From assembly GCF_024609215.1 (NCBI RefSeq), contig NZ_JANIPD030000044.1:1-64000 (forward strand): a DNA stretch of 64,000 bases, in the 5' to 3' direction. A model generated the notes under the pieces. That model searched no databases. It was not told the DNA's origin and was given only the letters and a program-made list of their open reading frames with translations. The stretch's first letter is position 1. Every line of letters starts with the position of its first letter. Below are positions 1,957 to 43,424 of this stretch, in pieces. A program made the position numbers and the translations under genes. This stretch comes from Curtanaerobium respiraculi. GTDB taxonomy: Bacteria; Actinomycetota; Coriobacteriia; Coriobacteriales; Eggerthellaceae.

Positions 1957-1972
1957 GTTAGACATATCTAAC
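1957..1972. promoter_or_regulatory. Shared palindrome GTTAG-N6-CTAAC, copy 1 (putative metal-responsive operator)
   Basis: The sequence is GTTAGACATATCTAAC, perfect 6-bp arms around CATA, directly upstream of the methyltransferase start. The same GTTAG-N6-CTAAC pattern recurs at 15755-15770 and 43409-43424. It resembles the inner part of DtxR/IdeR-type boxes (TTAGG...CCTAA). No DtxR-family gene is in the window. Confidence 0.65.
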
Positions 1973-2103
1973 CGAATGATAGCACTCGAGAATACGAGCT
2001 GATTCACCGCACGGCGAAAGAAGCGCCTGCGTCGAATCGCGGAATCAGGGGACGGGCCGAGGGGAGCACAAGCAACCTCCCGCAACGGGGACGGCAGCGC
2101 CTC

Positions 2104-3192
2104 CTAGAAAAACGAGAGGTATTCCTCGTCGGAGAGCTCGTAGCCATAGAACTGCCTATAGAAGCCCTTGGCCTCTTCTTTGAGGTCGATATCCCCCATC
2201 TGCTCCGGATACACCGTCTGCGCGAGCCACATGAAGCCCAAGATGGCTTCGGGGCTGGGACGATCCCACCAGAATCCCGCAATGGGGCACGAGTAAACCT
2301 GACGGTTCCGAATTGCCTTCAGATCTTTGATCTGGTCGTTGGCATAGAGAGCCTCTATATCGTTCCCGCCTTGGACGACGATGACATCCGGATCCCATTC
2401 GAAGACCTTCTCAATCGTGACATCGCCTTCGATCTCTGATTCCGGCACGGCAAAATCGGCACCGATGGCGTTGACCCAAGTACGCCCCCAGCTAGACTTC
2501 TTGTTCGCCTTCGTGATATCGGCCGCGGAGAGATAGTAGACCTTCTTGCGCGCTGACGTGGGTATTCCCGCCGCACGTTTATCGAGCTCGGCAAAGGTTT
2601 CGTTCCAGCGTTCGACCAGCTCCTGGGCCTTCGCCTCGTTGCCGAGGATCTTGCCAACGTTCAGGAACTCCTGTTTGAGTGTATCGATGGCCGCCCATCC
2701 GATGAGCATGACGTAAGTGGGGATGCCGACATCCGCAATCTGCGCGTTGCCCTTTTCGGAGCTGACGCCCACCAAGGCGACATCGGGTTTCCGGGCGACG
2801 AGAGCTTCGATGTTCAAATCGTCGAAGGAGCCGGCGTCTATCACGTCGTTGAACACCGGATACATCTTGAGCAGTTGAGGGAACCTCTTCATGGAAGGCT
2901 GCGCAACGATCTTGTCAGCGCCGCCGAAGATGGCAACCTCATGGGTCGCACCGCCGTTGCAGGTAATGGCGATGCGATCGACACTTTCCGGGATGGTGAA
3001 CTGATTTCCCTTCGCATCGATCACGATGTTCGATGCCTCTTCCGATGAGCTTGAAGCGCCAGGCCCGTTTGACGTGCTTCCTGCCGGCTGCGTGCAGCCG
3101 TTCAGCAAGGTTGAACCCGTTGCCGCAACCCCCATGACGATCAAGAGCTCGAAGAAGCGCCTTCTGTCGATCATGTTAGCTTTGCCGTTCAT
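2104..3192 (-). CDS. Iron/siderophore/cobalamin ABC transporter substrate-binding lipoprotein
   Basis: This 362-aa protein is the extracellular ligand-binding component of the importer encoded upstream. The N-terminus has a twin-arginine-like IDRRRFF motif, a hydrophobic stretch and a lipobox LLNGC with Cys33, so it is probably exported by Tat and lipid-anchored. The mature part follows the FepB/BtuF (periplasmic-binding class III, PF01497) pattern: a DRIAITCNGGATHE start, an ALVARKPDVALVG segment, and a C-terminal FEWDPDVIVV region. The ATG at 3192 is preceded by AAGGAGGAAAGCA. It is the last gene of a permease-ATPase-binding protein operon, 113 bp after the ATPase gene. The ligand (ferric siderophore, haem or cobalamin) cannot be read from the sequence. 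Confidence 0.88.
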   Translation of the reverse strand: MNGKANMIDRRRFFELLIVMGVAATGSTLLNGCTQPAGSTSNGPGASSSSEEASNIVIDAKGNQFTIPESVDRIAITCNGGATHEVAIFGGADKIVAQPSMKRFPQLLKMYPVFNDVIDAGSFDDLNIEALVARKPDVALVGVSSEKGNAQIADVGIPTYVMLIGWAAIDTLKQEFLNVGKILGNEAKAQELVERWNETFAELDKRAAGIPTSARKKVYYLSAADITKANKKSSWGRTWVNAIGADFAVPESEIEGDVTIEKVFEWDPDVIVVQGGNDIEALYANDQIKDLKAIRNRQVYSCPIAGFWWDRPSPEAILGFMWLAQTVYPEQMGDIDLKEEAKGFYRQFYGYELSDEEYLSFF

Positions 3193-3305
3193 TGCTTTCC
3201 TCCTTTTTCGATCCTTCGGATCATTTCCTACCGCTACGCTTCAAAGCGCACCGCGATCGCTGTTTGCAAGCTTGCGACCCCTTGCCACGCGGATCGAAGC
3301 CTTTT

Positions 3306-4157
3306 TCAAGGCATGATCTTGCGGCTCAGCCCCCCTGCTCCCCCGTCACGTGGACAAGGGCCGTCCTTTGTTTTAAGTAGCGGTACGCATGTGGTCACGG
3401 AGCCGTCGGGATGCTCGGGCACATCGATGGCGGCTATCTTCACGGGGATGCCGTAGGCATCCCGAAGCGTTTCCTCGGTTACGATCTTCTCGACGGCGTC
3501 TATGCGGAAGGGCTTCGTGCGGCTCATGACGGCTGCCTTGTCGCAACACAGGAACGCGTGGTCGGGAAAATGGGAAGTCATGATTATCCCCATGCCCCTT
3601 TGGGACAAGGCGCGAATCTGCGCAAGCACCCGCATCTGGTTCCCGAAATCCAGGCTTGATGTCGGTTCATCCATCATGAGAAACGCCGGATTCTGCATAA
3701 GCGCGCGGGCGATGAGCACCATCTGGCGTTCCCCGCCGCTGATCTCGGTGTATATGCGATCGCGCAGATACGAGATATCGAGAAGCTCGAGAAGCGCATC
3801 GGCCTCCTCGAACGCCTTGCGCGACGGTCCTGCGAAGGGATCGGAACGCGAAATGGATCCCATCACCACCACGTCGATGACCACGAAGGGGAAGGGCGGC
3901 TCATGCACCTGCGGCACATAGCCAATGAAAGACGCCATCTCCTTACGGTCTCTATGGTCGAGGGGATGTCCGTCGATATACAGACCCCCGGACGAGAAGG
4001 GGATGAAGCCCAGAAGCGATTTGAAAAGCGTCGTCTTCCCCACCCCGTTGGGTCCGAGCAGGCATAACACCTCGCCGCTCTCGATTTGGAAGCTGACATC
4101 GTGCACGACATCGATGCCGCGGTAGCCAGCGCAAACATCGCGTACCTCGAGAATCAT
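3306..4157 (-). CDS. FecE/BtuD-type ABC transporter ATP-binding protein
   Basis: This 283-aa protein powers the FecCD-type importer. Walker A is GPNGVGKTT, the signature motif EISGGERQM, Walker B FLMMDEPTSS, and the switch histidine lies in IIMTSHFPDH. The start MILEVRDVCAG at 4157 overlaps the permease stop by 4 bp (ATGA), so translation is coupled. The C-terminal extension after residue about 250, with a stretch of charged and glycine residues, is longer than in many homologues. Confidence 0.92.
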   Translation of the reverse strand: MILEVRDVCAGYRGIDVVHDVSFQIESGEVLCLLGPNGVGKTTLFKSLLGFIPFSSGGLYIDGHPLDHRDRKEMASFIGYVPQVHEPPFPFVVIDVVVMGSISRSDPFAGPSRKAFEEADALLELLDISYLRDRIYTEISGGERQMVLIARALMQNPAFLMMDEPTSSLDFGNQMRVLAQIRALSQRGMGIIMTSHFPDHAFLCCDKAAVMSRTKPFRIDAVEKIVTEETLRDAYGIPVKIAAIDVPEHPDGSVTTCVPLLKTKDGPCPRDGGAGGLSRKIMP

Positions 4158-5176
4158 GGCTGGCCCTTCTTCCTCTTGAGCAGAAGGTAGAAGAAGAACG
4201 GCGCTCCTATGATGGAAGTGAGGATCCCCAGCGGTATCTCGACGGTGAACATGTTGCGCGCCACGTTGTCTACCAAGAGCAGGAAGCTGCCACCAGTGAG
4301 AAACGACATGGGAAGCAGCTCCTTGCAATTCGGCCCCACGAGGAATCGGGCCATATGGGGGATGATGAGCCCTATCCACCCGATCATGCCCGCTATCGAC
4401 ACCGCCGCTGCGGTCAGCAACGTAGCGCAGAAGATGAACGTCGCGCGCAGCCGGTTCACGTTGAGACCCATCGCCTGCGCCTCCTCATCGCCGAATGCCA
4501 TGGTGTTGAGTTGCCAGCGCAGAGCGAACAACGGCGCCATCCCCAGGATGGTTGGCGGCAACAGGAAGACGATGTCCTGTAGATTGATGGTCGAAAGGCT
4601 TCCCATGAGCCAATATGTGATTTCGGGGAGCTTGCTGTCAGGATCGGCGACGTATTTCGTCAGGGTGATGAACGATGAGAAGAGGGTCGATACGATCATG
4701 CCGCCGAGCACCAACATGAGAAGGGCATCTTTCCCCTGGCTCACGCACTTGCAAATGAAATACGCCAGGGCGACCGCCGCGATGCCGAAGATAAACGCAT
4801 TGACCTGGATAATCGCATAGGGGAGAGACAAGAGTATGGCCAGAGCCGCGCCAAAGCCAGCGCCGGAGGAGGCGCCGAGGATATCGGGAGAGACCATGGG
4901 GTTCTTGAAGAGCGCTTGGTACACGCAGCCTGCCACGGAGAGCTCCGCACCGATCACCAGCGCGGCGCAAATACGGGGGAGCCGCACCTTCCACACGATC
5001 GTCTGGACCATCTCGCCTTCCGAGCATGGAAGCCCAAAGGACTTGGACACGATGATATCCACCACCGTAGACGGCTCAATAGGATACTGCCCCACCATGA
5101 ACGACGCGAAGAACAGCACGAGCATGATAATCGAAGCGATGGTTATGTACGCGAAGGTCGATTTTCCCTTTGCCAT
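4154..5176 (-). CDS. FecCD-family iron-complex ABC transporter permease
   Basis: This 340-aa polytopic membrane protein of the FecCD/BtuC family (PF01032) forms the homodimeric channel of the importer. The segment KVRLPRICAALVIGAELSVAG is the highly conserved FecCD N-terminal signature, and IGLIIPHMAR is the coupling-helix motif that contacts the ATPase. About nine to ten hydrophobic segments are visible. The ATG at 5176 is preceded by GGAG at suitable spacing. It is the first gene of the operon. A 7-bp-arm palindrome lies about 265 bp upstream (5439-5456). Confidence 0.92.
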   Translation of the reverse strand: MAKGKSTFAYITIASIIMLVLFFASFMVGQYPIEPSTVVDIIVSKSFGLPCSEGEMVQTIVWKVRLPRICAALVIGAELSVAGCVYQALFKNPMVSPDILGASSGAGFGAALAILLSLPYAIIQVNAFIFGIAAVALAYFICKCVSQGKDALLMLVLGGMIVSTLFSSFITLTKYVADPDSKLPEITYWLMGSLSTINLQDIVFLLPPTILGMAPLFALRWQLNTMAFGDEEAQAMGLNVNRLRATFIFCATLLTAAAVSIAGMIGWIGLIIPHMARFLVGPNCKELLPMSFLTGGSFLLLVDNVARNMFTVEIPLGILTSIIGAPFFFYLLLKRKKGQP

Positions 5177-5622
5177 GTTTACTCCGGCTCGTCGAACTCG
5201 CCCGTTCGTATTCCAGATGTCGCGGCACCCTCTGGGATTCTCCTCAGTTCCAAAACAATGCTCCTCGGCAAATTCATCTTCGATCGCACACCAGGGCAAG
5301 CAGTCATCATGGGACCCGGCACGCTGATTGCCGGATCGCCCCCGATGATACCGATCCCCACCGGACGCCCGAGAATGGCTACGAAGCTCGATCGAGGACG
5401 AACTTCGCACGATCCCCTGCGAATGGTGATAATCTATATATCCTTGCGTAAGGATAATACTTAAACCAGATAAGTCCACCGCTTTATCGATATTCCTATG
5501 AGATGGGGGATTCCCCGTAGAGATCCCAGCGGGACGGATAGCGGAATGCGACCGAACCGGAGCTCGGCTTCGGATCGCTCACGGGCTCGCCGGCTTTGCG
5601 CAAAGCGCAGCGAGTCGCACGG
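5177..5622. other. Intergenic region between the importer operon and the histidine kinase gene
   Basis: No convincing gene is present. A minus-strand frame from a GTG at 5361 (60 codons) overlaps the importer start and has no RBS. The interval holds the palindrome at 5439-5456, a likely leader/promoter of the importer operon, and a short GC-rich hairpin-forming stretch near 5550-5575 downstream of the kinase gene. Confidence 0.5.
5439..5456. promoter_or_regulatory. Palindrome TATCCTT-N4-AAGGATA upstream of the iron-type importer
   Basis: Perfect 7-bp arms (5439-5445 and 5450-5456) around GCGT in an AT-rich patch, the only such patch upstream of the FecCD operon. It is a candidate operator for that operon and differs from the GTTAG-N6-CTAAC boxes, so regulation may be separate. 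Confidence 0.5.
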
Positions 5623-7134
5623 CTATCGTTCGGGGCGGAACCGGGGGATTCGTATCTCAACGACCGATCCCCGTCCTTGCGGGTTGGGCATGAGGGCGAT
5701 ATCTCCCCCATGCGCCTCCACTATCATCTTCGCGATGGACAGACCGAGCCCCCTGCCCCCACGCGATTCTCGGGCCTTGTCGGCCCTATAGAACCGGTCG
5801 AACGCCCTTTCGGCGTCCTCGGGGGCGACCCCGATACCGGTATCGATCACGGAAATGCGCACGCGCCTGCCCTCGAGCGAGGCGTCCACCCGGATCGAAT
5901 CCCCCTCCGATGTGTATTTGATGGCATTGTCGAGCACAATGGCAAGAAGCTGGCAAAGCTTGGCTCGGTCTGCCGAGGCCGTCGCCCCGCTCTGTGCGCG
6001 CGCGGCAAGGTCCTTCCCCTGGAGCTCGGCGTAATCTCGGTAGACGGCAACCATCGACATCACGAGATCGTCGATATCGACCTCTTCCCTCTGAAGCTCG
6101 CCTCCGCCAGAATCGAGTTCTGTCAGCGTCAACAGATCGCCCGCCAAACGTGCGAGCCGGTCGGATTCGTCGATCGTTGCGGCTATGCCCTCGAAATGGT
6201 CGACGATTCGGTCGTTCGGATGCTCTAAAAGCACCTCTTGAGTCGTCTTGATCACGGCAAGCGGGGTACGCAATTCATGGGAGGCGTTCTGCACGAAGTC
6301 CGATTGCTTGCGCCATGATCGCGCGATAGGCTCGACCATTCGACGTGAAAGGAGGTAGCTCACCGCCGCGGCAAGCGCGAGGGCAATCGAGAAACCCACC
6401 GCCATCGATCTCGTGAACGTGGTAAGGATGCTCATCTCCGAATCGACATTGGCGACCACTTGGACGTATCCGAGCGCCGAAGGCCCATCGCCCACGGCCG
6501 AAGTCGTCATACGGAGCAGGTGCCCATCGCATGAGACCGTCTGCGGGGCGCCGAACGACGAGGGGTCGAAAGGAATGTCCTCAAGGTAATCGGGTTCGAT
6601 CTCATAGAGGCTGATGGCGCTTTCGGGCGAGCCTTGCGCATCCCGAATCACAAAGATGAACTGGGGTTTCGCCCCGACGTTGCGCTGCATGATCTCGAGC
6701 AGCCCCGAGGGGAACTCAAGCCCGAAGTCCGCGGGGAGGGCGATGCCATCCTGCGTGGCATCCGCCGTGGCCCCCTCGCGCTCGGCTCCCCCCGTCGACC
6801 CCCCATCGGCGGGCGATTCGAAGGAATCCCCCCCTTCGCCCACCTCGTACGACGAATTCCCGGAACGAACCGGGTCGGCGGCAGAAGCGCCATCGACAGC
6901 GCCCCCTGGCACCGGTTCGCCTCCCGATGAGGAACCGCTCTGCCTGATCCCGTTTTCGAGCGACGTTTGGATCCCCTGAAGCTGAGCATCTATGCCGTCG
7001 AAGAGGTTATCGCTCACCTGCCGATAGATGAAGAACCCCAGTATCAAAAGCAGGGCCGCGAGGACCACGAAAAGCGCGAGCGTCCCGCGTATCAACTCGC
7101 GATTGATCAGTCTCTGCTCCACGCGCGTCGGCAC
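5623..7134 (-). CDS. Membrane sensor histidine kinase
   Basis: This 503-aa protein has TM1 at about residues 17-37, an extracytoplasmic sensor region of about 205 residues, and TM2 at about 243-263. It ends in a catalytic core with the phospho-accepting His286 in NASHELRTPL, an N-box (IVLDNAIKYT), a G1 box (DTGIGV) and a G2 box (GRGLGLSIAK). The external region opens with a low-complexity Ser/Gly/Ala/Asp/Glu stretch (about 65-125), unlike a folded sensor. The GTG start at 7134 overlaps the stop of the response regulator (TAGTG), so the pair is co-translated. Its partner efflux genes are transcribed divergently, suggesting it senses an antimicrobial peptide or envelope stress (inference). Confidence 0.92.
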   Translation of the reverse strand: MPTRVEQRLINRELIRGTLALFVVLAALLLILGFFIYRQVSDNLFDGIDAQLQGIQTSLENGIRQSGSSSGGEPVPGGAVDGASAADPVRSGNSSYEVGEGGDSFESPADGGSTGGAEREGATADATQDGIALPADFGLEFPSGLLEIMQRNVGAKPQFIFVIRDAQGSPESAISLYEIEPDYLEDIPFDPSSFGAPQTVSCDGHLLRMTTSAVGDGPSALGYVQVVANVDSEMSILTTFTRSMAVGFSIALALAAAVSYLLSRRMVEPIARSWRKQSDFVQNASHELRTPLAVIKTTQEVLLEHPNDRIVDHFEGIAATIDESDRLARLAGDLLTLTELDSGGGELQREEVDIDDLVMSMVAVYRDYAELQGKDLAARAQSGATASADRAKLCQLLAIVLDNAIKYTSEGDSIRVDASLEGRRVRISVIDTGIGVAPEDAERAFDRFYRADKARESRGGRGLGLSIAKMIVEAHGGDIALMPNPQGRGSVVEIRIPRFRPER

Positions 7135-7811
7135 TAGGCATCATCTCCCCCGAATAGATAGCCCGCGCCCCGGATGGTTTGCAGATAACGGTCGTATCCG
7201 AAGGGTTTGAGCTGCTTGCGCACAGCGCTTACATATACCTCCACCACGTTCGGGAAGGTATCGGACATGAAGCCCCAAACTTTATCGAATATCTGGGTCT
7301 TGGATATCAGCTGACCTTGGCGGCTCACTAAAAACTCGAGCACATCATACTGGCGCCCCCTCAGCTCGAGCTCTTCGCCACCGATAGATGCGGTGCGCGA
7401 ATCCGGGTAAAGGGTCAGTTCCTTGAAGGTGAATTCGCGCCGGACGAACGAGCTCATGGTCCGGCGCAATATGGCCTCGATACGCAAAAGCAGCTCGTCT
7501 TTGGCGAACGGCTTCGTCAGGTAGTCATCGGCACCGCTTCGGAATCCCCGAATCCTATCGTCGATCCCGCGCAGGGCGGTGAGGATGAGGACCGGAGTAT
7601 CCACTCCCTCGGCACGAAGGCGCTCGAGAACCTCGTACCCGCCCATGTTGGGGAGCATCAGATCGAGCACGATCAGATCGTAGATGCCTTCTTTTGCAAA
7701 AAAGTAACCCTCTTCCCCATCGAAAGCCTGTTGAACCGCGTATGTCGGTTCAAGCACCTGGCGCATCGCCTCCGACAGCCTCACGTTATCATCGATAAGA
7801 AGGATAACCAA
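7134..7811 (-). CDS. OmpR/PhoB-family response regulator
   Basis: This 225-aa protein has a receiver domain with acidic pocket IDD near residues 6-8, phospho-acceptor Asp50 in VLDLMLPN and conserved Lys in TKPFAKDEL. The C-terminal winged helix shows the typical LELRGRQYDVLEFL and VEVYVSAVRKQLKPF segments. It is the first gene of the two-component operon and lies back to back with the efflux operon; a TTTAAGG direct repeat in the shared intergenic region is its probable binding site. Confidence 0.93.
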   Translation of the reverse strand: MVILLIDDNVRLSEAMRQVLEPTYAVQQAFDGEEGYFFAKEGIYDLIVLDLMLPNMGGYEVLERLRAEGVDTPVLILTALRGIDDRIRGFRSGADDYLTKPFAKDELLLRIEAILRRTMSSFVRREFTFKELTLYPDSRTASIGGEELELRGRQYDVLEFLVSRQGQLISKTQIFDKVWGFMSDTFPNVVEVYVSAVRKQLKPFGYDRYLQTIRGAGYLFGGDDA

Positions 7812-7967
7812 AAGAACCAGCCTCCGTCATCCGAATGGTTGTTAGATCACGAGCCCGGCAGCGATCGGGAAAACGGGGCGGGGCAAGCGTGGGACGCATA
7901 AGCGGAAATCTCCGATTTCAAAGAATAATACCCGTTCAAGATGGCCATAGGATAACCAAAATCCGGA

Positions 7968-11089: not shown

Positions 11090-11533
11090 GGGCCTTTCCG
11101 GCATTCGAATAGCGTGGAAGCAGCCGCCCGGATTAGGCAATAGGAAGATGAAAGGAGCATCAAGCCAATCTGGTTGCCGGTCTTCGTAGACACGGAACCC
11201 AGGAATTCCATCTTCAAGGACCGATAGCCGCAGGGCGCGTCTGCACCCTGCGCTATCCTCGTGTACGGAGACGGCAACGATATCCAACAACATCCTGGAC
11301 CTGCCCGGGAAGGAGCTGCTCATCAAGTCCTACAGGCGGAGTCCTAGCGTCAAGATCGCGGACTTCTGCAAGGCGAACAACATGACAGGCGACATCCCAG
11401 ACGTGGCTCGGAGGATACGACGTGCAGCAATGGGATGCGAGAACGCTTGAGAAACGACTTTCTGGTGCACGATTTTCGCGAAATCGGTTTTTTCGAGCTT
11501 TTTCGCAACGGATTTCCTCAACCCGGCACTTCC
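11090..11533. other. Intergenic stretch with a possible gene remnant
   Basis: Minus and plus frames here are short. One plus-strand reading, about 11266-11450, translates without a stop as protein-like sequence (LPGKELLIKSYRRSPSVKI, then ADFCKANNMT and an Arg-rich end), reminiscent of a helix-turn-helix N-terminus of a transposase or regulator. It has no credible start codon or RBS. I regard it as a probable remnant of unknown origin; the rest shows nothing recognisable. Confidence 0.35.
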
Positions 11534-12229: not shown

Positions 12230-13969
12230 CTACGCGACGGCTATCTTCCATCCGGCGGCGCGTTCGCGCATGTTCACGAAATCGGCGTAGAGGCCGCCCT
12301 GCTCCATGAGCTCGCCGTGGGTCCCGCGCTGCACGATGCGTCCGGCATCCATCACGAGTATCTGGTCGGCGTCTCGCACGGTCTTCAGCCGATGGGCGAT
12401 CATGATGACGGTCTTACTCTGCGTCAGCTCGGCGATCGCCCGCTGCAGATCCAGCTCGTTTTCCGGGTCGACGTTGGCGGTGGCCTCGTCGAGCACGACG
12501 ATGGGCGCGTCCTTCAGTATGGCGCGCGCGATGGACAACCGCTGCCGCTCGCCTCCCGAAAGCGTCGCCCCGTTCTCGCCGAGGCGCGTGGCGTAACCGT
12601 TCGGGAGCGCGGAGATGAACTCGTCGCAGCACGCCCTGCGCGCGGCGGCAACGACCTGCTCGTGGGTGGCGGCAGGCGTGCCGAACTTGATGTTGTTCTC
12701 GATGGTGTCATCGAACAGGAATACGCCTTGGAACACCGTCGAGAAATTGGCGAGCAGAGCATCCACCCGGTAGTCGCGCACGTCGCGCCCGCCAAGCGCG
12801 ATCCTCCCCTCGTCGACATCCCAGAAGCGCTCGATCAGGCGAACGAGCGTCGTCTTGCCAGAGCCGGACGGTCCCACGATGGCGCAGGAGGTTCCGGCGG
12901 GTACGGTAAGGCTCACGTCCTCGAGCACCCTGCCCGAACCGTAGCCGAAGGACACGTTCTCGACGTTGATATCCAATCCGGGCGCCTCTTCCAAGCCGGC
13001 GCCCTCGTCCATGCCCTTGACGGCGAGCATGGCGTCGACGCGGCCCATGGCAACTTCGATCTGGCGCAATATGGTGGAGAATGCGCCCGACATCTCGAGT
13101 CGGCTGAACACCATGAACGATGCGACTATCATGGTCAGGCTGATGCCTGCGTCCATGGAGCCGGAGACGAGCAGCCAGCACGAGAGCAGGCACATGGCGA
13201 CGCTCGACGCCTTCGATACGAAGGCCTGCATGACAGCGAAGCGCATCGCGGCAAGCTCGAATGCGACATTTTGGCGCTCGCAATCGGCTATAGCGCCGGA
13301 AAGGCGGTCTTGCGCGCTATCGAGCAGGGAAAACGCCCGCACGACGCCGATTCCGCGCACGTATTCGAGCACGGCGCCCACGATGCGCGCCTGCGCCGCG
13401 ACGCGCTTGTCGGAAGTGGCGCGGACGAAGCGCTGCAGGAGTTCCATGCTTCCGGCGAACAGCGCGATGGTTACCAGCGTGAGCAGGCCGAGCCGCCAAT
13501 CGAGCACGAACATCATGGCACAGATCATGAGCGAGAACGCCAGCCCGCCGAGCACGGCCTGATAGACCATGCCGCCGAGGTTCTGCACATCGTCGAGCGT
13601 GTTGGTCATGACGCCCGTCACCTCACCCAGGCTCTTCTCGTTGAAATACCCCATGGGGAGATGGCGCAGCCTGTCCCCCACCTCAGCGCGCTTCCTCCCC
13701 GCATTGCCATAGTTGGCGAAGCAGAAGTTCATGCTCGAGAGGTGGGCGGTGATGAACGAACCCGCGATGCTCGCCAGCATGATGGCGAGCGCGACGAGCG
13801 CGGTGGATCCGGACACCGTGCCGTGTGCGAGGTCGGTGAACACGACCCAGAGGGCCGTGATCTGCAGCGCCTCGAACAGCGCGTGCAGGAAGGTGAAGAC
13901 GAGGCCGCGGATGAGCTTCGGCTGATAGGCGCGTCCGAATGCGAAATACTCTCTGAGAACGGAAATCAT
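12230..13969 (-). CDS. Exporter-fold ABC transporter, second half (YbtQ/IrtB-like)
   Basis: This 579-aa protein fuses a six-helix type IV ABC membrane domain (about 1-320) with an ATPase domain (Walker A GPSGSGKTT, signature LSGGERQRLS, Walker B IVVLDEAT, switch IAHRL). It forms a heterodimer with the product of the gene 14 bp upstream. Pairs of this kind next to a TetR gene include drug exporters, but the membrane domains here look closest to the YbtPQ/IrtAB group, which has an exporter fold yet imports ferric siderophores. Import versus export is an inference from similarity, pairing and the operator upstream. Confidence 0.85.
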   Translation of the reverse strand: MISVLREYFAFGRAYQPKLIRGLVFTFLHALFEALQITALWVVFTDLAHGTVSGSTALVALAIMLASIAGSFITAHLSSMNFCFANYGNAGRKRAEVGDRLRHLPMGYFNEKSLGEVTGVMTNTLDDVQNLGGMVYQAVLGGLAFSLMICAMMFVLDWRLGLLTLVTIALFAGSMELLQRFVRATSDKRVAAQARIVGAVLEYVRGIGVVRAFSLLDSAQDRLSGAIADCERQNVAFELAAMRFAVMQAFVSKASSVAMCLLSCWLLVSGSMDAGISLTMIVASFMVFSRLEMSGAFSTILRQIEVAMGRVDAMLAVKGMDEGAGLEEAPGLDINVENVSFGYGSGRVLEDVSLTVPAGTSCAIVGPSGSGKTTLVRLIERFWDVDEGRIALGGRDVRDYRVDALLANFSTVFQGVFLFDDTIENNIKFGTPAATHEQVVAAARRACCDEFISALPNGYATRLGENGATLSGGERQRLSIARAILKDAPIVVLDEATANVDPENELDLQRAIAELTQSKTVIMIAHRLKTVRDADQILVMDAGRIVQRGTHGELMEQGGLYADFVNMRERAAGWKIAVA

Positions 13970-13983: not shown

Positions 13984-15738
13984 TCAGGCTGCGTCCCGCG
14001 CACCGATGTGGGCGCGGTACATGTCGGCATAGAGCGGGCAGTCCGCCATGAGCTCGTCATGGGTCCCCTGCGCCTCGATACGGCCCTGGGATACCACGAC
14101 GATGGCATCTGCGTCGCGCACGGTGGAAAGGCGGTGGGCTATCACCACGAGGGTCTTGCCGGCCACGAGTCGCGCGACGGCCGATTCGACCTCGGCCTCG
14201 CTCTCGGGGTCGGCGTAGGCCGTCGCCTCGTCGAGCAGGACGATGGGAGCGTCTTTGAGCATGGCGCGCGCGATGGCGACGCGCTGGCGCTCGCCTCCCG
14301 AAAGATGACCGCCCGAGCTGCCTACAACGGTTTGGTAACCGGCGGGCAGACCCGTGATGAAATCGTGGCACCCCGACGCCTTCGCGCAGGCGACCACCTC
14401 GTCATCGTCCGCATCGGGGCGCCCCATGCGGATGTTGTTCATGATGGTGTCGTCGAACAGATAGCTGTTCTGGTCCACATAGGCGACCTGCTCCGCCAGC
14501 TGATCGGCGGTGAGCTCTTCGAGCGAACGGCCCCCGATGCGCACGCTGCCGCCGTCCGGGTCCCAGAATCCGGCGATGAGGCGGGCGAGCGTCGACTTGC
14601 CCGAGCCCGACGGCCCCACGAGCGCCGTCACGCCCCCCTCTTCGATGGAAAGGTCGACGCCGTGGATGACCTCCGCATCGCCGTACGAGAAGCGGACATC
14701 CGAAAGCTCGATGCCATGGCCGTCGAGGTCGGCCGGCGCGGATGCGCGGTGCTGGTCGGCAATGTCGAGCACCCGCGAGATCTCGCCCACCGTGGTGCCG
14801 ATCTGCGCCAAGGAGTCGGTGAAGCTCATAGCCGAGTACAGCGGAGGGAAGATGCCCACCGAAAGCACGGCGCACATGGCGAAGGCGGCAGGCTCGAGCG
14901 TGCCCTGGGAGACGAACAGGCAGCCCAGCGGCAGCACGGTCACGAGCGTCGCCGGCGCCACGGACAGCGTTCCGTCGGACCATATCTGGCAATGCGCCAT
15001 CCAATCGATGAACGAATGCGCCGACGTATGCACGGCACGGGAGAACTTCTCGTACGAGCTGGCCGATTGGCCGAATGCCTTGATGACCTCGATGCCCGCG
15101 ACGTACTCCACCGAGGCGTCGTTCATGGCCTTGCCCGCCTCGACGGTGCGGCCGTACCATTCCTCGTAGTCCCGTGTCATCCCCGCCATGCACAGCATGC
15201 CGAGCGCGATGGGCACGAGCGCGGCGAGGGCGAGCCTCCAGTCGAGGGTGAACAGGTACACGATGACTGCCAGGGGCACCAGCAGGTTGGAGGTGAGCTC
15301 GGGCACGGCATGGGCGAGCATGGTCTCGATGCTGTCGACCTTCTCCACCATGAGCGATTTCAGCGTCCCCGAAGGGGTCTCGAGCACGCGGCCCATGGGG
15401 ACGTGGACGAGCTTCTCGGCCAGGAGGCGGCGGATATGCGAGATCGTGGCGAACGTGGCGATGTGCGAGATCGCCGTGGAGGCGAAGTGGAACACGAGGT
15501 AGACGAGGTAGCCGACGGCGGCAACGATCCCCCAATACAGGAAGAAGCTCCACTCCCTCCCCCCGTCGAGGATCCCCGCGACCATGTTGCCGGCGGCGAA
15601 ATAGGGAACGATGCTCCCGGCGACCCCGATGATCGCCAGAACGACGCTCACGGCATAGCTGCCCTTCCGCTCCGACCACCCCAAGAGCAATGCCACGGGG
15701 GAGGGATCTCTGGGCGTTTCAGATTTCGAACGAGCCAT
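13984..15738 (-). CDS. Exporter-fold ABC transporter, first half (YbtP/IrtA-like)
   Basis: This 584-aa half-transporter has an N-terminal type IV membrane domain (about 20-330) and a C-terminal ATPase (Walker A GPSGSGKST, signature LSGGERQRVAIARAM, Walker B IVLLDEAT, switch VIAHRLS). The first helix pair reads SIVPYFAAGNMV, which resembles siderophore-importing exporter-fold ABC proteins. No SIP-type ferric reductase domain, as in mycobacterial IrtA, is attached. It heads the operon. Two palindromes, a shared GTTAG-N6-CTAAC box and a TetR-like operator, sit within 50 bp of its start. Confidence 0.85.
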   Translation of the reverse strand: MARSKSETPRDPSPVALLLGWSERKGSYAVSVVLAIIGVAGSIVPYFAAGNMVAGILDGGREWSFFLYWGIVAAVGYLVYLVFHFASTAISHIATFATISHIRRLLAEKLVHVPMGRVLETPSGTLKSLMVEKVDSIETMLAHAVPELTSNLLVPLAVIVYLFTLDWRLALAALVPIALGMLCMAGMTRDYEEWYGRTVEAGKAMNDASVEYVAGIEVIKAFGQSASSYEKFSRAVHTSAHSFIDWMAHCQIWSDGTLSVAPATLVTVLPLGCLFVSQGTLEPAAFAMCAVLSVGIFPPLYSAMSFTDSLAQIGTTVGEISRVLDIADQHRASAPADLDGHGIELSDVRFSYGDAEVIHGVDLSIEEGGVTALVGPSGSGKSTLARLIAGFWDPDGGSVRIGGRSLEELTADQLAEQVAYVDQNSYLFDDTIMNNIRMGRPDADDDEVVACAKASGCHDFITGLPAGYQTVVGSSGGHLSGGERQRVAIARAMLKDAPIVLLDEATAYADPESEAEVESAVARLVAGKTLVVIAHRLSTVRDADAIVVVSQGRIEAQGTHDELMADCPLYADMYRAHIGARDAA

Positions 15739-15754: not shown

Positions 15755-15770
15755 GTTAGGGTAAGCTAAC
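15755..15770. promoter_or_regulatory. Shared palindrome GTTAG-N6-CTAAC, copy 2
   Basis: GTTAGGGTAAGCTAAC lies 17 bp upstream of the first ABC gene. The extended site TTAGGGTAAGCTAAC matches the DtxR/IdeR consensus TTAGGTTAGCCTAACCTAA at about 13 of 19 positions by eye. Arms are the same as in copies 1957-1972 and 43409-43424. Confidence 0.65.
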
Positions 15771-37169: not shown

Positions 37170-38063
37170 CTACCAGCTGATGAGCTCGTAGCCATCCTCT
37201 GTCACCACGAGCTGCACCTCCCACTGAGCGCTGTCGCTGCCGTCGGCGGTGCGCACGGTCCAACCATTCGGATCGTTCATGTCGATAGCTGCCCTGCCCG
37301 CATTCACCATAGGTTCGATGGTGAAGCACATTCCGGGCACCAAGATGGGACCAGTACCCGCCTTTGCAACGAAGCTAACGAAGGGATCCTCGTGGAACTC
37401 CAGGCCGATGCCGTGTCCGCCGAATTCCGCCACCACGGAATAGCCGGCTTCGGTTGCCACCTTGTTCACGGCAGCGCTGACATCTCCCAGATGAGTCCAC
37501 GGCTTCACCGCGGCAAGCCCGGCCTGAACGCTTTCGCGCGTGACCTCGCACAAGCGTCGACGTTTCTCGCTCACCTCGCCAACGTAGAACATCCGGCTGG
37601 AATCGCTGAAATACCCATTTCGAATCGTGGACATATCGATGTTGACGATATCGCCCTCCTTCAGGATATCGTCCTTCGAGGGAATGCCGTGACACACGAC
37701 GTCGTTGATGCTCGTGCACACGCTTTTCGGGAATCCCTCGTAATCCAAATCGGCAGGGATCGCGTTATGGGCGGCACAGTAATCGTAGATCCACTTGTCG
37801 ATCTCCTCGGTTGACACGCCGGGCCTCACCAGCTCCCCCACCCCGTCGAGCACGCCCACGTTAACTTCCGCGGAGTACTTCATACCCTCGATGTCTAACT
37901 TGGTCTTGAGCAGGGAGCGATGGGGGATCTCCTCCCCTTTCTCCCACAGCTCCTGCATGCGCTCGTCGTTACGCGCATGGCATTTTTTGTATTTTCGCCC
38001 GCTGCCACACCAGCAATTGTCGTTGCGACCGGGATTCTTCATTCCATCGAACATCAAAGACAT
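37170..38063 (-). CDS. map: Methionine aminopeptidase, type I, with N-terminal SEC-C zinc motif
   Basis: About 297 aa. It removes the initiator methionine. The N-terminus carries a SEC-C motif (CWCGSGRKYKKCH), which tethers such MetAPs to ribosomes. The catalytic domain has the metal ligands in NIDMSTIRNGYFSD (two Asp), FGGHGIGLEFHE (His), TIEPM (Glu) and the terminal WEVQLVV (Glu). ATG at 38063 was chosen because AAAGGTG lies 8 bp upstream; a GTG at 38072 is in frame. Repeat-rich DNA flanks both ends. Confidence 0.95.
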   Translation of the reverse strand: MSLMFDGMKNPGRNDNCWCGSGRKYKKCHARNDERMQELWEKGEEIPHRSLLKTKLDIEGMKYSAEVNVGVLDGVGELVRPGVSTEEIDKWIYDYCAAHNAIPADLDYEGFPKSVCTSINDVVCHGIPSKDDILKEGDIVNIDMSTIRNGYFSDSSRMFYVGEVSEKRRRLCEVTRESVQAGLAAVKPWTHLGDVSAAVNKVATEAGYSVVAEFGGHGIGLEFHEDPFVSFVAKAGTGPILVPGMCFTIEPMVNAGRAAIDMNDPNGWTVRTADGSDSAQWEVQLVVTEDGYELISW

Positions 38064-38190
38064 GATTCGCACCTTTCAGCTGCATGTTTTTTCGCTCCAC
38101 ATGATAATCCAATCGCAGAACGAGGACAGCATGGTTAGGAAAGGCGAATACAAAGTCCTTAGCGAGAGGACACCATGAAGGCGCCAGAAT

Positions 38191-38730
38191 GTGACAAAGT
38201 CTACGGTTTGCTGGCACCTACGGGGCTGGCACCCGGTTGGCTGGCACCGATGAAGACGCCGGGATGTGACAAAGCATGCGGTTGGCTGGCACGGTTGGCG
38301 ATCGCTGGGCCAAATTTCAAGGATAATCGCATCCGACCTCCACCCGAACGAGCATATTCGGTATCTGCTATTCAATAGCCCCTGTTCAAAAGCGAATCAA
38401 TTGAGCCGTCTGATCGGACAGGGCAGAGGAAATGCGATTATCCGACTAAAATGGCCCCGGAGGGAGCGCTGAACCAACGTAAAATGCGATTTGCTCCGCA
38501 GATTGGCCCTCACCGGTAAAGATTGTCGGTGCATATGAGCGCCCGCTGACGTGCCCACCCCGCATGCTTTGTCAATGGCAGCGGGGGAAGCGGACGAATA
38601 GTTGGACCAACTTGGTCCGGTTAGGCAGCCTGACGGTACGAAAAATCGTCCGCACCCCCAACGCCGCCGTACCAAAGCATGCGATTGCCCGGCGCAGGGT
38701 ACAGTGACAAAGCATGCGGTTGGCTGGCAC
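38191..38730. repeat. Cluster of two dispersed repeat families between map and uvrB
   Basis: Family A (GTGACAAAGCATGCGGTTG, 27 bp): plus copies at 38191-38217, 38266-38292 and 38704-38730, with partial copies at about 38222-38249, 38551-38575 (minus) and 38671-38695. Family B (26 bp, ends GGGCCA...AATCGCAT): 38307-38332 (plus), 38432-38457 and 38484-38509 (minus). The 20-mer seen at 37006 recurs at 38635-38654. No gene fits in this 735-bp interval (38064-38798). Confidence 0.8.
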
Positions 38731-38798
38731 ACGGCACAGGCACACGTGGAGAACGGTACGCCGAAAAGAAAACCGCACCCCGTCGAACTGGCAAAATG

Positions 38799-40919
38799 CT
38801 AGCGACGCTGGCGCTTGCCGTATTTGCTTCCCTTGCGGGCGGATTTCTTCAGATCGGCCAGCGCCTCGGTTTCGCTGGATCCCTCATACTGCGCCCGCAG
38901 CTTCACCACCTCGTCGCGCAGCTGCGCCGCGCGCTCGAAATCCATGTCGGCACTCGCCGCGGCCATCTCTTCCTCCAAGCTGGACAGGATGCGCAGCACT
39001 TCCTCGCGCGCCAAGCTGGCGAGCTGCAGGTTGACCTGCTCGCTCGTGCTCTCGTCATCGGAGAAGCCGACGATATCGCTGATGGCCTTGCGGATGGTCT
39101 GCGGCTCTATCCCGTGCTCCTCATTGTACGCCATCTGCATCTTGCGGCGGCGGTTGGTTTCCGTGATGGCCAGGTCCATGCTGTCGGTCGTCTTGTCCGC
39201 GTACATGATCACTTGGCCGCTGACGTTGCGGGCAGCACGGCCGATGGTCTGGATGAGCGACCGGTAGTTGCGCAGGAAACCCTCCTTGTCGGCGTCTAAT
39301 ATGGCTACAAGCGACACCTCCGGCAAGTCGAGCCCTTCGCGCAACAGGTTGATGCCCACGAGCACGTCGAACTTGCCCAAACGCAGATCGCGCAATATAT
39401 CCACGCGATCGAGCGTGCCGATGTCCGAGTGCATGTAATTCGCCCGTATCCCCTCGTCGAGAAGATGGTCGGTCAAATCCTCCGCCATCTTCTTCGTGAG
39501 TGTGGTTACCAGCACGCGCTCCTTCCGCTCGGCCCGCATCCGTATCTCGTCGATGATGTCGTCGATCTGGCTCGCGCTGGGCCGCACGATGATCTCCGGG
39601 TCGAGCAGGCCCGTGGGCCGGATGATCTGCTCCACGGTCTTCTGCGTCACGCGCTTCTCGTAATCGCCCGGGGTGGCGCTGACGTAGATGAACTGCGGCA
39701 CCCGCTGCTCGAATTCGTCGAAGCGCAGGGGGCGGTTGTCCAAGCAGCTGGGCAGCCGGAACCCATGCTCCGCCAACGTGACCTTGCGGCTGCGGTCCCC
39801 TTCGTGCATGCCGCGGATCTGCGGCACCGTCACGTGGCTCTCGTCGATGATGCAGAGGAAATCATCGGGAAAATAGTCGATCAACGTGTACGGCGGCTCA
39901 CCCGGCGCGCGCCCGTCAAGATGGCGCGAGTAGTTCTCGATGCCGCTGCAGAAGCCCATCGTCTCCATCATCTCGAGATCGTAGGTGGTGCGCATCTCCA
40001 AACGCTGAGCTTCGAGCAGTTTCCCCTCGCTCTTGAACTGCTGCAGGCGCACGCGCAACTCGTCGCGAATCGTGCGGATGGCGTGGTCCATCTTAGGCTT
40101 TGCCGTCACATAATGGCTCGCGGGCCATATGGGAAGCGCCTCGAACGAGTTCACCGCCTCACCCGTCACGTTCCCGATCTCGGTGATAGATTCCACCTCG
40201 TCGCCCCAGAACTCCACGCGCACGGGATTGTCCGCGTAGGCGGGAAACACATCCACTGCGTCCCCCCGCACGCGGAACGTGCCGCGGGACAGCTCGTAGT
40301 CGTTGCGGTCGTATTGGATATCCACGAGCCCTCGGATGAAATCGTCGCGATCCATCGGCTTCTCCCTGTCCACGAACACCGCCATGCCCGCGTAGTCCGC
40401 CGGGCTGCCGATGCCGTAGATGCAGGAGACCGATGCGACCACGATCACATCGCGGCGCGAAAGCAATGCGGCTGTCGCGGCATGCCGCAGCTTCTCGACC
40501 TCCTCGTTGATGCTGGCATCCTTCTCGATGAACGTGTCCGTGGTGGGTACGTATGCCTCGGGCTGGTAGTAGTCGTAGTAGCTTACGAAGTACACCACGG
40601 CGTTGTCCGGGAAGAAGTCCTTCAACTCCGCGGCGATCTGGGCGGCCAGCGTCTTGTTGGGCTCCAGCACCAGCGTGGGCTTGCCCGTTGCCTCGATGGT
40701 TTTGGCCATGGTGAACGTCTTGCCGCTTCCGGTGACGCCGAGCAGCGTTTGGTAGCGAAGGCCGTCCTCCACGCCTTGCGCGAGCTGATGGATGGCCTGG
40801 GGCTGGTCGCCGGAAGGCTCGAAAGGGGCCTTCACCGTCAACGGCTGGCTGGCAAGGCGCACATCGGGCAGCTTGCCCTCCATCGGGGCGCCTTCGATAT
40901 TCCGTAAATGCTGCGACAT
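38799..40919 (-). CDS. uvrB: Excinuclease ABC subunit B
   Basis: This 706-aa protein is the damage-verifying helicase-like subunit of nucleotide excision repair. Walker A is [13 protein letters not shown] (from residue 61), the beta-hairpin is [22 protein letters not shown], the helicase motifs include [17 protein letters not shown] and QTIGRAARN, and the C-terminal UvrC-binding UVR domain ends the protein. An alternative ATG at 40883 (MEGKLPDV) is possible. The stop of coaE directly abuts the first ATG, so the two are an operon. Confidence 0.96.
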
Positions 40920-41522
40920 CTACGAGGTGATCTGCTTCCACACGCGGTCGGTCTGGGTCTCCAGCTCTTCCAGCGTGCCCTTGTTGCTGATCACGTAATC
41001 GCTCCATATCGCGCGCTGTGTGTCGGCGGGCTGCCGGGCGATGCGGTTCTTCACGTCCTGCGGATCGAATCCCTTGGCGATGGCGCGCTCGAGCCGCACG
41101 CGCGTGGGGCACGTGACGGCGATGATGCCGTCGTTCCCGCGGATAAGCGGGGCGAAGGTGCCCTCGGGGCCGTCGTAAACGGAAATCTCGATCACCAGGT
41201 TCTCGACGCCCTCCTCCCGCAGTGCGGCAACCTTCTCCTGCGCCAGCTTCAGCAGGCGCGGCTGGGAGATCGCATTCAATTTGATGGTGTTGGCAGGGGT
41301 GGAGAAGGCGGCCTCAGCGAGCTTCGGCCGGTTGATCTGGCCGTCCTCGGTCAATATGTCGTTCCCGAACGTGCTGGTCATCAGCGCCACCACCTCGGGT
41401 TTCAGCAGCACCTCATGCCCGACTTTGTCCAAATCGAGCAGACGGGCCCCACGCTCCTCGAGCAGCTTGGCGACCGTGGTCTTTCCCGAGCCGATACCGC
41501 CGATGAGTATGAATTCCTTCAT
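40920..41522 (-). CDS. coaE: Dephospho-CoA kinase
   Basis: This 200-aa kinase catalyses the last step of coenzyme A synthesis. The P-loop is GGIGSGKTTVAK at the N-terminus, followed by DLDKVGHEV and a central IEISVYDGPEG segment, with RLERAIAKGFDPQDVKNRI as the typical lid/CoA-binding region. It begins directly after the rpsA terminator and is in operon with uvrB. Confidence 0.92.
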   Translation of the reverse strand: MKEFILIGGIGSGKTTVAKLLEERGARLLDLDKVGHEVLLKPEVVALMTSTFGNDILTEDGQINRPKLAEAAFSTPANTIKLNAISQPRLLKLAQEKVAALREEGVENLVIEISVYDGPEGTFAPLIRGNDGIIAVTCPTRVRLERAIAKGFDPQDVKNRIARQPADTQRAIWSDYVISNKGTLEELETQTDRVWKQITS

Positions 41523-41712
41523 GGTGCCTCCTGTGCTGATGAAACGCGCCCCCTATCGGATGCTCTGGGCGCAGGGACTTCGCTGCATATCCTAGCAAGA
41601 ATGCAGCACTTCGTGCGCGGCAATCGCAGCAATCATGGTAATCGGCATTTTCGCAGGTGGCGAGCGGATATTTGGAAAGTGCGAAGGCGCCCTCCATACT
41701 CGGCGCACAGAA

Positions 41713-41745
41713 GAAGGGCCCGCCCGGGGGGAGCGGACCCTTCGA
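41713..41745 (-). terminator. Terminator of rpsA
   Basis: On the minus strand a GC-rich stem (GAAGGGTCCGC pairing with GGGCCCTTC-type sequence) lies about 30 bp after the rpsA stop codon. Confidence 0.6.
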
Positions 41746-41768
41746 TCGAGCGCGTTTCAGCGCAGAGG

Positions 41769-42980
41769 CTATTCGGCGCCCTGCTCGCGGGCGGCGCGCT
41801 CGGCGGCGCGCTTCTCCTGACGGATGCGCTTCTCCTCCAGAGCGGCCGGATCGGGTTCGGCGACGGCAATCTCGATGCCCAGCTCCTCGGCGGCGGCCTT
41901 CATGGACAAGCTGATGCGGCGACGCTCCTTGTTGATCTCCATGACCTTGACCTTGACCTCGTCGCCCGCATGCACGACCTGCGTGGGGGTATCGATGTGG
42001 CGGTTGGCCATCTCGGAGATGTGCACCAGGCCCTCGACGTTGGGGCCGAGCTCCACGAACGCGCCGAACGGAACAGTCTTGGTGACCTTGCCGTCGGCGA
42101 TGCTGTTGACGGGGTAGCTCTCCACCAGCTTGACCCACGGATCCTCGGTGGTCTGCTTCAGACCCAGGCTGATGCGCTCGCGCTGCAGATCGACGTCGAG
42201 CACCTCGACCTCGACCTCGTCGCCCACCTTGACGACTTCGCTGGGATGGTTCACATGGCTCCAGGAGAGCTCGGAGATGTGCACCAGGCCGTCGATGCCG
42301 CCCAAATCCACGAAGGCGCCGAAGTCGACGATGCTGGACACGGTACCCTTCAGGCGCATGCCCTTGGACAGGCGGGACAGGATCTCGGCACGCTCGTTCT
42401 TGCGGCCTTCCTCCAGCAGCACGCGGCGGGAAAGGACGACGTTGTTGCGGTTGCGGTCCATTTCGATGACGCGGGCTTCCAGCTCGGTGCCCATGTACAT
42501 GTCCAGGTCCTTCACGCGGCGAAGGTCGACCAGCGAAGCGGGCAGGAAGCCGCGCAGGCCGATGTCCAGGATCAGGCCGCCCTTGACGACTTCGATGACC
42601 TCGCCCGTGACGGTCTCGCCGGCCTTGAATTTGTCTTCCACGGAAATCCAGGCGCGCTCGTACTCCGCACGCTTCTTCGACAGGATGAGGCGGCCGTCCT
42701 TGTCCTCTTTCTGAAGGACCAGCGCTTCCAGCTTGTCGCCCAGCGAAACGATCTCGGAAGGATCGGCATCCTTGCGGATGGAGAGCTCGCGGCTGGGAAT
42801 GACACCCTCGCTCTTGAAGCCGATGTCGACGAGCACCTCGTCATGCTCGATCTTGACGACGGTGCCGTCGACCAGATCGCCCTCATCGAACTCGGTGAGC
42901 GTGCCATCGATCATCTCGTTCATCTTCTCATCGGAGACGTCCTCGTAATCGATCACAGACGGGTTCTTGATTTCGGTCAA
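41769..42980 (-). CDS. rpsA: 30S ribosomal protein S1 (four S1 domains)
   Basis: This 403-aa protein carries four S1 RNA-binding domains, at about 35-105, 120-185, 205-275 and 290-360, each with GD-V-GTV or [12 protein letters not shown] type repeats, then a charged helical tail. Actinobacterial S1 typically has four rather than six domains. It begins with TTG at 42980 (TTGACCGAAATC), preceded by AAGGGG at -9. The preceding leader is about 140 nt; an extended -10 TGCTACAAT is on the minus strand near 43122-43130. Confidence 0.94.
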
Positions 42981-43408
42981 AATGGACCCCTTTCATAAAA
43001 ACGGGGACCCTTCGTCATGATTGCGTGCTACGTACCATGTTCACAACATCGAATGTGAGCAAAACATGTCTCGGGGGCCAATATTCCTCCCTGCGCGACC
43101 CGTTATCGCACAAGTTCGCTCATTGTAGCACGACCCCCCGCGATGCCGCCGTGAATTCGGCGGGTTTTCACGCCCGCGAGCCGAACCGGAGGTTGTTGTT
43201 CGCACCCCGGCATGCGGCGGCCGGAGCGCCGCTTGGGACGGGGCGATCAGCCCGGCTGCTTGGGAAACGTCCCTCGCAGGGGTTTGGACGGGCAAAGCCC
43301 GAAAAACCAGCGGTTCCTTAGAGGAAGAACAGGCATCGTGATGGAGAAAGCCAGATCCCTTTCGGATGCTATCAGGAATAAAAATCACAGCAGGATATAT
43401 TACGAGCA
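42981..43408. other. Intergenic region: rpsA leader and promoter plus unassigned GC-rich hairpins
   Basis: The minus-strand rpsA promoter (TACAAT at 43122-43127) and its 140-nt leader occupy 42981-43130; the leader contains a GTTCACA/TGTGAGC-type inverted repeat near 43040-43065. From 43140 to 43340 lies GC-rich DNA with several short stems (for example CGGGCAAAGCCCG). I find no match to a known riboswitch and no gene. Confidence 0.5.
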
Positions 43409-43424
43409 GTTAGACTTGTCTAAC
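43409..43424. promoter_or_regulatory. Shared palindrome GTTAG-N6-CTAAC, copy 3
   Basis: GTTAGACTTGTCTAAC, perfect 6-bp arms around CTTG, lies 69 bp upstream of the ECF S-component gene. Arms are identical to copy 1 (1957-1972). Confidence 0.65.

What the first reader, a model, noticed from the sequence alone, without database searches (positions are those of the whole stretch)
1957..43424. Shared palindrome GTTAG-N6-CTAAC at three metal/siderophore-type loci: candidate undescribed regulon
Three palindromes with identical GTTAG/CTAAC arms occur at 1957-1972, 15755-15770 and 43409-43424, each right before a promoter-proximal gene: methyltransferase + thiazoline-hydrolase-like pair, YbtPQ-like ABC pair, and ECF + AraC operon. 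Two have perfect 6-bp arms. The pattern resembles DtxR/IdeR iron boxes (site 2 matches that consensus at about 13 of 19). By chance a given 10-bp spaced pattern would occur about once per million bases, so three well-placed copies in 64 kb are meaningful. Proposed: a metal-responsive regulon for siderophore or haem scavenging.
Basis: partly seen in the sequence, partly recalled or inferred. Interest (0 to 1): 0.85.

Follow-up and report, generated by a model that had tools for sequence, protein, structure and literature searches.

The report
Iron-repressor operators in gut bacteria
Three identical DNA palindromes in this bacterium are very probably binding sites of a small iron-sensing repressor that controls many iron-uptake and siderophore genes, and the same site marks iron genes in a good part of the related repressor loci of other gut anaerobes.

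Summary
The three GTTAG-N6-CTAAC sites are real and part of a genome-wide set: 17 exact copies in 2.50 Mb, 0 for the reversed control, 17 of 17 intergenic. Nearby genes include feoAB, ferrochelatase, DUF3793-flavodoxin, a thiazoline-type siderophore NRPS, and gene runs holding six of eight Trep_Strep ECF genes. Two short DtxR-family proteins carry the DtxR-type Met/Cys/Glu/His ligands; each has a site upstream (one exact, one with a mismatch). In 80 public loci fetched only by DtxR similarity the pattern occurs 77 times (1.2 expected, reversed control 1) in 38 loci, none in 42; 26 of 80 dtxR genes have an exact copy within 400 bp upstream, control 0; 36 of 77 copies precede feo genes. The core equals that of the operator of EqbA, a short DtxR repressor with Fe2+-enhanced binding (PMC3672683), and is a relaxed 14-bp single-dimer IdeR box (PMC8464063). 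No binding or expression was measured here.

The parts
1957..1972 (.). Operator 1, GTTAGACATATCTAAC, 15 bp upstream of the LCM methyltransferase gene (minus strand)
1105..1941 (-). LCM-type SAM methyltransferase, first gene behind operator 1
   Evidence: Pfam PF04072 E 1.2e-7, over cut-off; TIGR00027 below cut-off
483..1097 (-). ATC_hydrolase family protein, second gene behind operator 1
   Evidence: Pfam PF14196 E 1.7e-24; no NCBIfam match
2104..5176 (-). FecBCD-type ABC importer (binding protein 2104-3192, ATPase 3306-4157, FecCD permease 4154-5176) beside operator 1, pointing toward it; not shown to be controlled by it
   Evidence: Pfam PF01497, PF00005 and PF01032
15755..15770 (.). Operator 2, GTTAGGGTAAGCTAAC, 16 bp upstream of the ATG at 15738, next to a TATATA stretch
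13984..15738 (-). ABC transporter with fused membrane and ATPase parts, first gene behind operator 2 (the likeness to YbtPQ is by layout, no call matched YbtP or YbtQ)
   Evidence: Pfam PF00664 + PF00005; the 25 NCBIfam models shown, of 187, are all below cut-off, mostly exporters
12230..13969 (-). Partner ABC transporter half
   Evidence: Pfam PF00664 + PF00005
11534..12169 (-). TetR-family regulator after the ABC pair
   Evidence: Pfam PF00440 E 7.6e-16
43409..43424 (.). Operator 3, GTTAGACTTGTCTAAC, 68 bp upstream of the ECF operon, with TATATT shortly before it
43493..44083 (+). ECF transporter S component, Trep_Strep/MptD family
   Evidence: Pfam PF09605 E 6.2e-54; TIGR02185 over its cut-off
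44087..44830 (+). ECF T component (CbiQ)
   Evidence: Pfam PF02361
44827..46347 (+). Double ECF ATPase
   Evidence: Pfam PF00005, two stretches
46344..47360 (+). AraC-family regulator, last gene of the ECF run
   Evidence: Pfam PF12833 E 1.3e-21

Best explanation
The palindromes are operators of a short (about 125 aa) DtxR/IdeR-type repressor. The genome has two 72%-identical copies with the same recognition helix, both outside the window. With iron plentiful, Fe2+ binds the Met/Cys/Glu/His site, a dimer sits on the 16-bp operator close to the -10 region and start, and transcription of iron-acquisition operons is blocked; under iron starvation they are released. In the window this would switch a methyltransferase/ATC-hydrolase pair, an ABC pair and an ECF transporter with its own AraC regulator. 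Shown: the sites, their placement, the target families, the repressor genes with their ligands, and the linkage of the pattern to dtxR and feo genes in other bacteria. Inferred: that these two proteins bind, that Fe2+ is the co-repressor here, that binding represses, and that one dimer suffices.
For: 17 exact sites vs 0 reversed control; 17 of 17 intergenic. Iron-related targets. Two DtxR genes with sites upstream: dtxR2 exact at -308 and one-mismatch at -39, dtxR1 one-mismatch at -150. Ligands M11, C102, E105, H106 invariant in 15 sequences and aligned with those columns of the diphtheria repressor. Co-occurrence: of 60 family genomes, the 14 whose best DtxR2 match has over 104 bits have 73 sites vs 15 control, the other 46 have 48 vs 46 (Mann-Whitney p 3.7e-5; without the own genome 56 vs 15, p 9.9e-5; the cut was set after seeing the tables). 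80 loci fetched by DtxR only: 77 sites, 1.2 expected, reversed control 1; 26 of 80 dtxR with an exact upstream site, control 0; genes behind the 77: feo 36, dtxR 26, DUF3793 7, FecE-like 2, other 6. The published EqbA operator contains GTTAGATGTATCTAAC; binding needs the palindrome and is enhanced by Fe2+. IdeR binds a half-box as one dimer.
Against: No binding or expression data for this organism. 42 of the 80 DtxR loci hold no exact site, and 54 of 80 dtxR have none within 400 bp upstream. The nearest solved structure by sequence is MntR. At the DtxR ancillary-site residues Glu83 and His98 (recalled) DtxR2 has T84 and E98. Own sites prefer A or G at position 6, those outside Coriobacteriia prefer C, so specificity is not identical. 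EqbA has Asn where these have Met. Of 14 Met-type dtxR genes parsed in the family, 2 of them own, 7 have no site within one mismatch upstream. One of eight Trep_Strep gene runs has no site in the stretch fetched. One-mismatch totals are close to the reversed control. The exact site nearest the main feo cluster is 483 bp from feoA; nearer ones have a mismatch.
Confidence: 0.92

Rival explanations
1. The same short DtxR proteins act, but on Mn2+ (MntR-like) or on several divalent metals, so the regulon is for metals in general.
For: Best PDB sequence match is MntR; EqbA binding was also enhanced by Zn2+ and, less, by Mn2+.
Against: The Met/Cys pair is the iron-type pair according to the passage in PMC3672683 that cites Guedon and Helmann; targets are feoAB, ferrochelatase, siderophore NRPS; no manganese transporter was seen among the targets scanned.
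Confidence: 0.1
2. The palindromes are sites of another regulator: one of the AraC or TetR proteins near some sites, or one of two Fur-family proteins.
For: AraC genes stand in or beside several target gene runs, also beside dtxR2 and feoB; two Fur-family genes exist.
Against: Sites also precede DUF3793, HMA, ferrochelatase and NRPS genes where no AraC was called next to them; sites follow dtxR in loci of other phyla and the DtxR subtype across the family; the EqbA operator shares the core.
Confidence: 0.04
3. Chance palindromes in A+T-rich promoter gaps of a G+C-rich genome.
For: One-mismatch copies are hardly more common than the reversed pattern; two-mismatch copies in the window are at background.
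Against: 17 vs 0 exact; 1 hit in total for 29 control arms in the window; sites at orthologous feo and DUF3793-flavodoxin genes of relatives.
Confidence: 0.01

Closest known systems
EqbA and its operator in the equibactin locus of ICESe2 (PMC3672683; passages, section 9 read)
   Same: Short DtxR-family repressor without the SH3 domain; operator contains GTTAG-N6-CTAAC exactly; the locus holds a salicylate/thiazoline NRPS, an importer (eqbHIJ) and YbtPQ-like ABC genes (eqbKL), the kinds of targets found here.
   Different: EqbA has Asn/Cys rather than Met/Cys ligands and was studied on one promoter with a 36-bp palindrome; here two paralogues face 17 exact sites, with feo, dtxR and other targets. 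The authors called the operator unlike other iron boxes.
DtxR/IdeR iron box TTAGGTTAGSCTAACCTAA and its 14-bp single-dimer form TTAGGNNNNCCTAA (PMC8464063; passages)
   Same: TTAG/CTAA arms at the same spacing; the C-to-T change at position 1, tolerated by IdeR, is the variant at window sites 1 and 3; iron-acquisition targets.
   Different: Flanks of the own sites carry little information (at most 0.40 bit), so no second offset dimer site is seen; the outer G/C is in the pattern searched; regulators lack an SH3 domain; some dtxR genes have a site upstream (26 of 80 exact), while the paper found none for ideR in S. erythraea. The strict 14-bp form with one mismatch is not enriched here (34 vs 37).
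MntR of Bacillus and E. coli
   Same: Two-domain protein of similar length; best PDB sequence match.
   Different: Met and Cys stand at the MntR Asp and Glu ligand columns; targets are iron, not manganese, genes.

Membership tests
DtxR/IdeR-type iron-dependent repressor regulon | Regulator with the Fe_dep_repress and Fe_dep_repr_C domains | tested here: met
   PF01325 and PF02742 over cut-off in both proteins
DtxR/IdeR-type iron-dependent repressor regulon | Primary metal site Met10, Cys102, Glu105, His106 | tested here: met
   M11, C102, E105, H106 invariant in 15 sequences and aligned with DtxR chain 1bi0; in 76 of 80 public loci the pair is M and C, 1 is N and C, 3 not parsed. Residue roles are recalled, in part supported
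DtxR/IdeR-type iron-dependent repressor regulon | C-terminal SH3-like domain | tested here: not met
   Proteins of 123 and 125 aa; median 123 aa and at most 146 in the 77 parsed public relatives, counted from the first Met
DtxR/IdeR-type iron-dependent repressor regulon | 19-bp two-dimer box | tested here: not met
   Only the 16-bp core is conserved; fits a relaxed 14-bp single-dimer form
DtxR/IdeR-type iron-dependent repressor regulon | Sites upstream of iron-acquisition genes | tested here: met
DtxR/IdeR-type iron-dependent repressor regulon | Fe2+-dependent binding and repression | not testable with these tools
   needs gel shift and expression data
MntR manganese regulon | Asp8 and Glu99 metal ligands | tested here: not met
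   Met and Cys at those columns (MntR numbering recalled)
EqbA-type operator | GTTAG-N6-CTAAC palindrome bound by a short DtxR protein | tested here: inconclusive
   Palindrome present and short DtxR genes present; binding in this organism not tested

The most novel reading that the evidence does not exclude
GTTAG-N6-CTAAC is a general single-dimer iron box of a clade of SH3-less, Met/Cys-type DtxR repressors that serve as a main iron switch in obligate gut and rumen anaerobes (Coriobacteriia and Bacillota such as Lachnospiraceae, Oscillospiraceae, Ruminococcus-type and Erysipelotrichaceae genomes); in this Denitrobacterium it was extended to a set of siderophore and haem scavenging systems built on Trep_Strep ECF transporters and to a nitrogenase-like cluster.
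Probability: 0.5. Interest if true: 0.65.

Novelty: new variant of a known kind. Interest (0 to 1): 0.5.

Why it matters
To my knowledge iron regulation in gut and rumen anaerobes is poorly charted. A short, exact pattern that marks iron genes in many such genomes would let iron regulons be listed by sequence alone, connects an operator that its discoverers found unlike other iron boxes (EqbA) with the IdeR half-box, and suggests a role in iron scavenging for Trep_Strep ECF transporters, DUF3793 and ATC_hydrolase-family proteins.

Tried and rejected
Reversed pattern as control at one mismatch: 30 hits against 41, so I do not claim the one-mismatch sites by count, only by placement. The narrower pattern TTAGGNNNNCCTAA with one mismatch is not enriched over its reversed control (34 vs 37). 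A link between recognition-helix residues and the base at position 6 was tried; 46 of 80 helices were not parsed and the Denitrobacterium-type group had 4 base counts, so nothing is concluded. AraC, TetR and Fur as the binder: rejected for the reasons under rivals. A TAnnnT (-10-like) element ends -1 to 9 nt before the operator in 10 of 17 sites, against 5, 5, 0 and 2 of 17 in equal bins further up: suggestive, modest. Paper searches: the pattern in six spellings found only PMC8464063; Eggerthella lenta + iron + DtxR none; Coriobacteriia + siderophore + DtxR one paper, seen only in the listing; the listings showed no title on a regulon of this group, and PMC12709192 was seen in passages only (an equibactin-like NRPS with an ECF importer in staphylococci). 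The library holds open-licence papers only, so work elsewhere, and regulon collections, could not be checked. No structure prediction was run.
Full report
OBSERVATION. The three palindromes are at the stated places and are the only exact matches in the window; 0.01 is expected. At two mismatches the window is at background (8 vs 6.9). Among 30 arm rearrangements, GTTAG has 3 hits and the 29 others 1 in all. In the window's own genome (2,495,890 bases, 44 contigs, 99.5% complete) there are 17 exact sites and 0 for the reversed pattern; with one mismatch, 41 against 30. My simple codon-based gene caller puts 17 of 17 exact sites in intergenic gaps; 15 of 17 lie 15-118 bp from a downstream start, the others 222 and 419 bp. 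The 21 one-mismatch sites in fetched stretches (of 24 in the genome) are intergenic too, against 11 of 75 control-arm hits.

ORGANISM. The genome shares its genus with G024; contig 68 of G024 (11,820 bases, dtxR ending at 11,249) corresponds to a public record of the same length and gene position titled uncultured Denitrobacterium sp.. So the window is probably from a Denitrobacterium (Eggerthellaceae, Coriobacteriia); this is an inference.

TARGETS. Genes beside exact sites: LCM methyltransferase and ATC_hydrolase; an ABC pair; Trep_Strep ECF with AraC (all window). In L017: an ABC ATPase, an HMA protein, ferrochelatase, flavin reductase-rubredoxin, a DUF3793 protein, a fused ABC transporter, dtxR2 at 292 bp, and an exact site 483 bp from feoA-feoA-feoB and 419 bp from a threonine-synthase-like gene, with two one-mismatch sites about 76 and 105 bp from the first feoA. 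Elsewhere: AraC and a CbiQ/ECF/ABC run (L018); DUF3793-flavodoxin (L019); aryl-AMP ligase and an NRPS (L020); an NMT1-type ABC importer (L021); AraC and an ABC pair followed by Trep_Strep (L022); AraC followed by Trep_Strep (L023); an ECF/ABC run (L024); an ECF run with AraC, and an HMA protein (L025). One-mismatch sites lie before dtxR1 and a divergent ABC ATPase-sufB pair, a second feoAB, a CRP-type regulator, an ABC pair, a Trep_Strep run and others. Not every neighbour is an evident iron gene (AraC, threonine synthase, an AAA/DUF4143 protein). Of 8 Trep_Strep genes in the genome, 6 lie in gene runs headed by an exact site, 1 by a one-mismatch site, and 1 (C2:34221) has none in the stretch fetched; that the runs are operons is inferred from spacing.

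SIDEROPHORE GENES. The operator at C2:292436 lies between a ligase best matched by DHB-AMP ligase (below its cut-off) and an NRPS that starts carrier protein-cyclisation-type domain (Pfam Condensation; signature DxxxxDxxS read by eye). Two further NRPS pieces at C12 and C32 carry the same signature; one has adenylation, methyltransferase, carrier and thioesterase domains, the other methyltransferase and carrier. This recalls equibactin, whose NRPS has three cyclisation domains, a methyltransferase and a thioesterase; that the pieces form one cluster is inferred.

REGULATOR. Two DtxR-family genes exist, 72% identical, with identical SKPTISEWMGKL helices. Sites stand at -308 (exact) and -39 (one mismatch) of dtxR2 and -150 (one mismatch) of dtxR1. 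The primary metal ligands align with those of DtxR. Two Fur-family genes exist as well.

RELATIVES. In 60 family genomes, the 14 with a close relative of DtxR2 carry 73 sites vs 15 control; the other 46 carry 48 vs 46. Upstream 400 bp of dtxR: Met-type (14, two of them own) 4 exact and 7 within one mismatch, control 0 and 1; Asp-type (42) 3 exact and 8 within one mismatch, control 0 and 0; 12 loci were not parsed, among them L052, which has an exact site at -64. In 13 relatives, an exact site lies at feo genes in 7 (G048, G038, G008, G018, G014, G019, and G029, where it is 443 bp from feoA with a one-mismatch site nearer; in G038, whose DtxR is Asp-type, it is between feoA and feoB), and upstream of DUF3793-flavodoxin in 3 (G009, G024, G029); G009 has two exact sites upstream of the orthologue of the nitrogenase-like cluster. 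In G024 an exact site abuts a methyltransferase-LCM protein, and another precedes a protein with a haem-binding Shp domain, followed by one with a NEAT match below its cut-off.

TEST WITHOUT CHOOSING BY MOTIF. The 80 best loci (of 586) from one scan of 84,980 species genomes, fetched by DtxR similarity alone, are mostly titled as gut or rumen Clostridia. In their 1.20 Mb the pattern occurs 77 times (1.2 expected from base composition; reversed 1) and has the highest enrichment among five-base palindromes with at least 6 copies, at gap 6 and over gaps 2-8. The sites fall in 38 loci; 42 have none, among them the one titled Spirochaetes. Gene behind each of the 77: feo 36, dtxR 26, DUF3793 7, FecE-like 2, other 6. 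Position 6 is A or G in 82% of own half-sites and C in 65% of half-sites of the 74 sites outside Coriobacteriia.

LITERATURE. PMC3672683 prints the EqbA operator; its centre is GTTAGATGTATCTAAC. Recombinant EqbA needs the palindrome, binding is enhanced by Fe2+ and Zn2+ and less by Mn2+, and deletion of eqbA raised eqbE transcript 13-fold. PMC8464063 shows IdeR binding a half box as one dimer, proposes TTAGGNNNNCCTAA, and finds no significant effect of the C-to-T change at position 1. Window sites 1 and 3 are that variant.

CONCLUSION. The sites are very probably operators of a short iron-type DtxR repressor. The regulon here and its spread are, as far as the searches named under Tried and rejected reach, not described; the operator core and the mechanism are.

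Noticed in passing
L016:2391-8823 (own genome, outside the window); L089 (G009): NifH-like protein, two NifE/NifD-like proteins and a FecCD/ATPase/binding-protein importer in one cluster, with a one-mismatch operator here and two exact operators before the G009 orthologue: a probably iron-regulated nitrogenase-like system of unknown role.
   Followed up: partly
L020, L237, L238 (own genome): Pieces of a thiazoline-type siderophore NRPS with three cyclisation-type domains, two of the pieces running into contig ends or filling a contig.
   Followed up: partly
G000, eight places listed: Eight Trep_Strep ECF S components in a 2.5-Mb genome, several with AraC regulators or ABC pairs nearby; none in the 14 control genomes.
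   Followed up: partly
L055, L064, L114, L116, L117, L126: A second DtxR type (Asp at the Met position) in many Eggerthellaceae has, in these 6 of 42, related sites near GTTAGCCTATACTAAC about 230-340 bp upstream, so a sister regulator may use a close variant of the box.
   Followed up: partly
L026:3840-3869: Two one-mismatch operators overlapping by two bases, about 320 bp before a protein of at least 1271 aa (cut by the stretch) with an MBG domain.
   Followed up: no
L096:2643-5000 (G024): A protein with a Shp haem-binding domain, and one with a weak NEAT match, behind an exact operator in a species of the same genus.
   Followed up: partly
L017:14758-15677; L099, L070, L105: feoAAB stands divergent from a threonine-synthase-like gene with operators in the gap, here and in G029, G048 and G019.
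   Followed up: no
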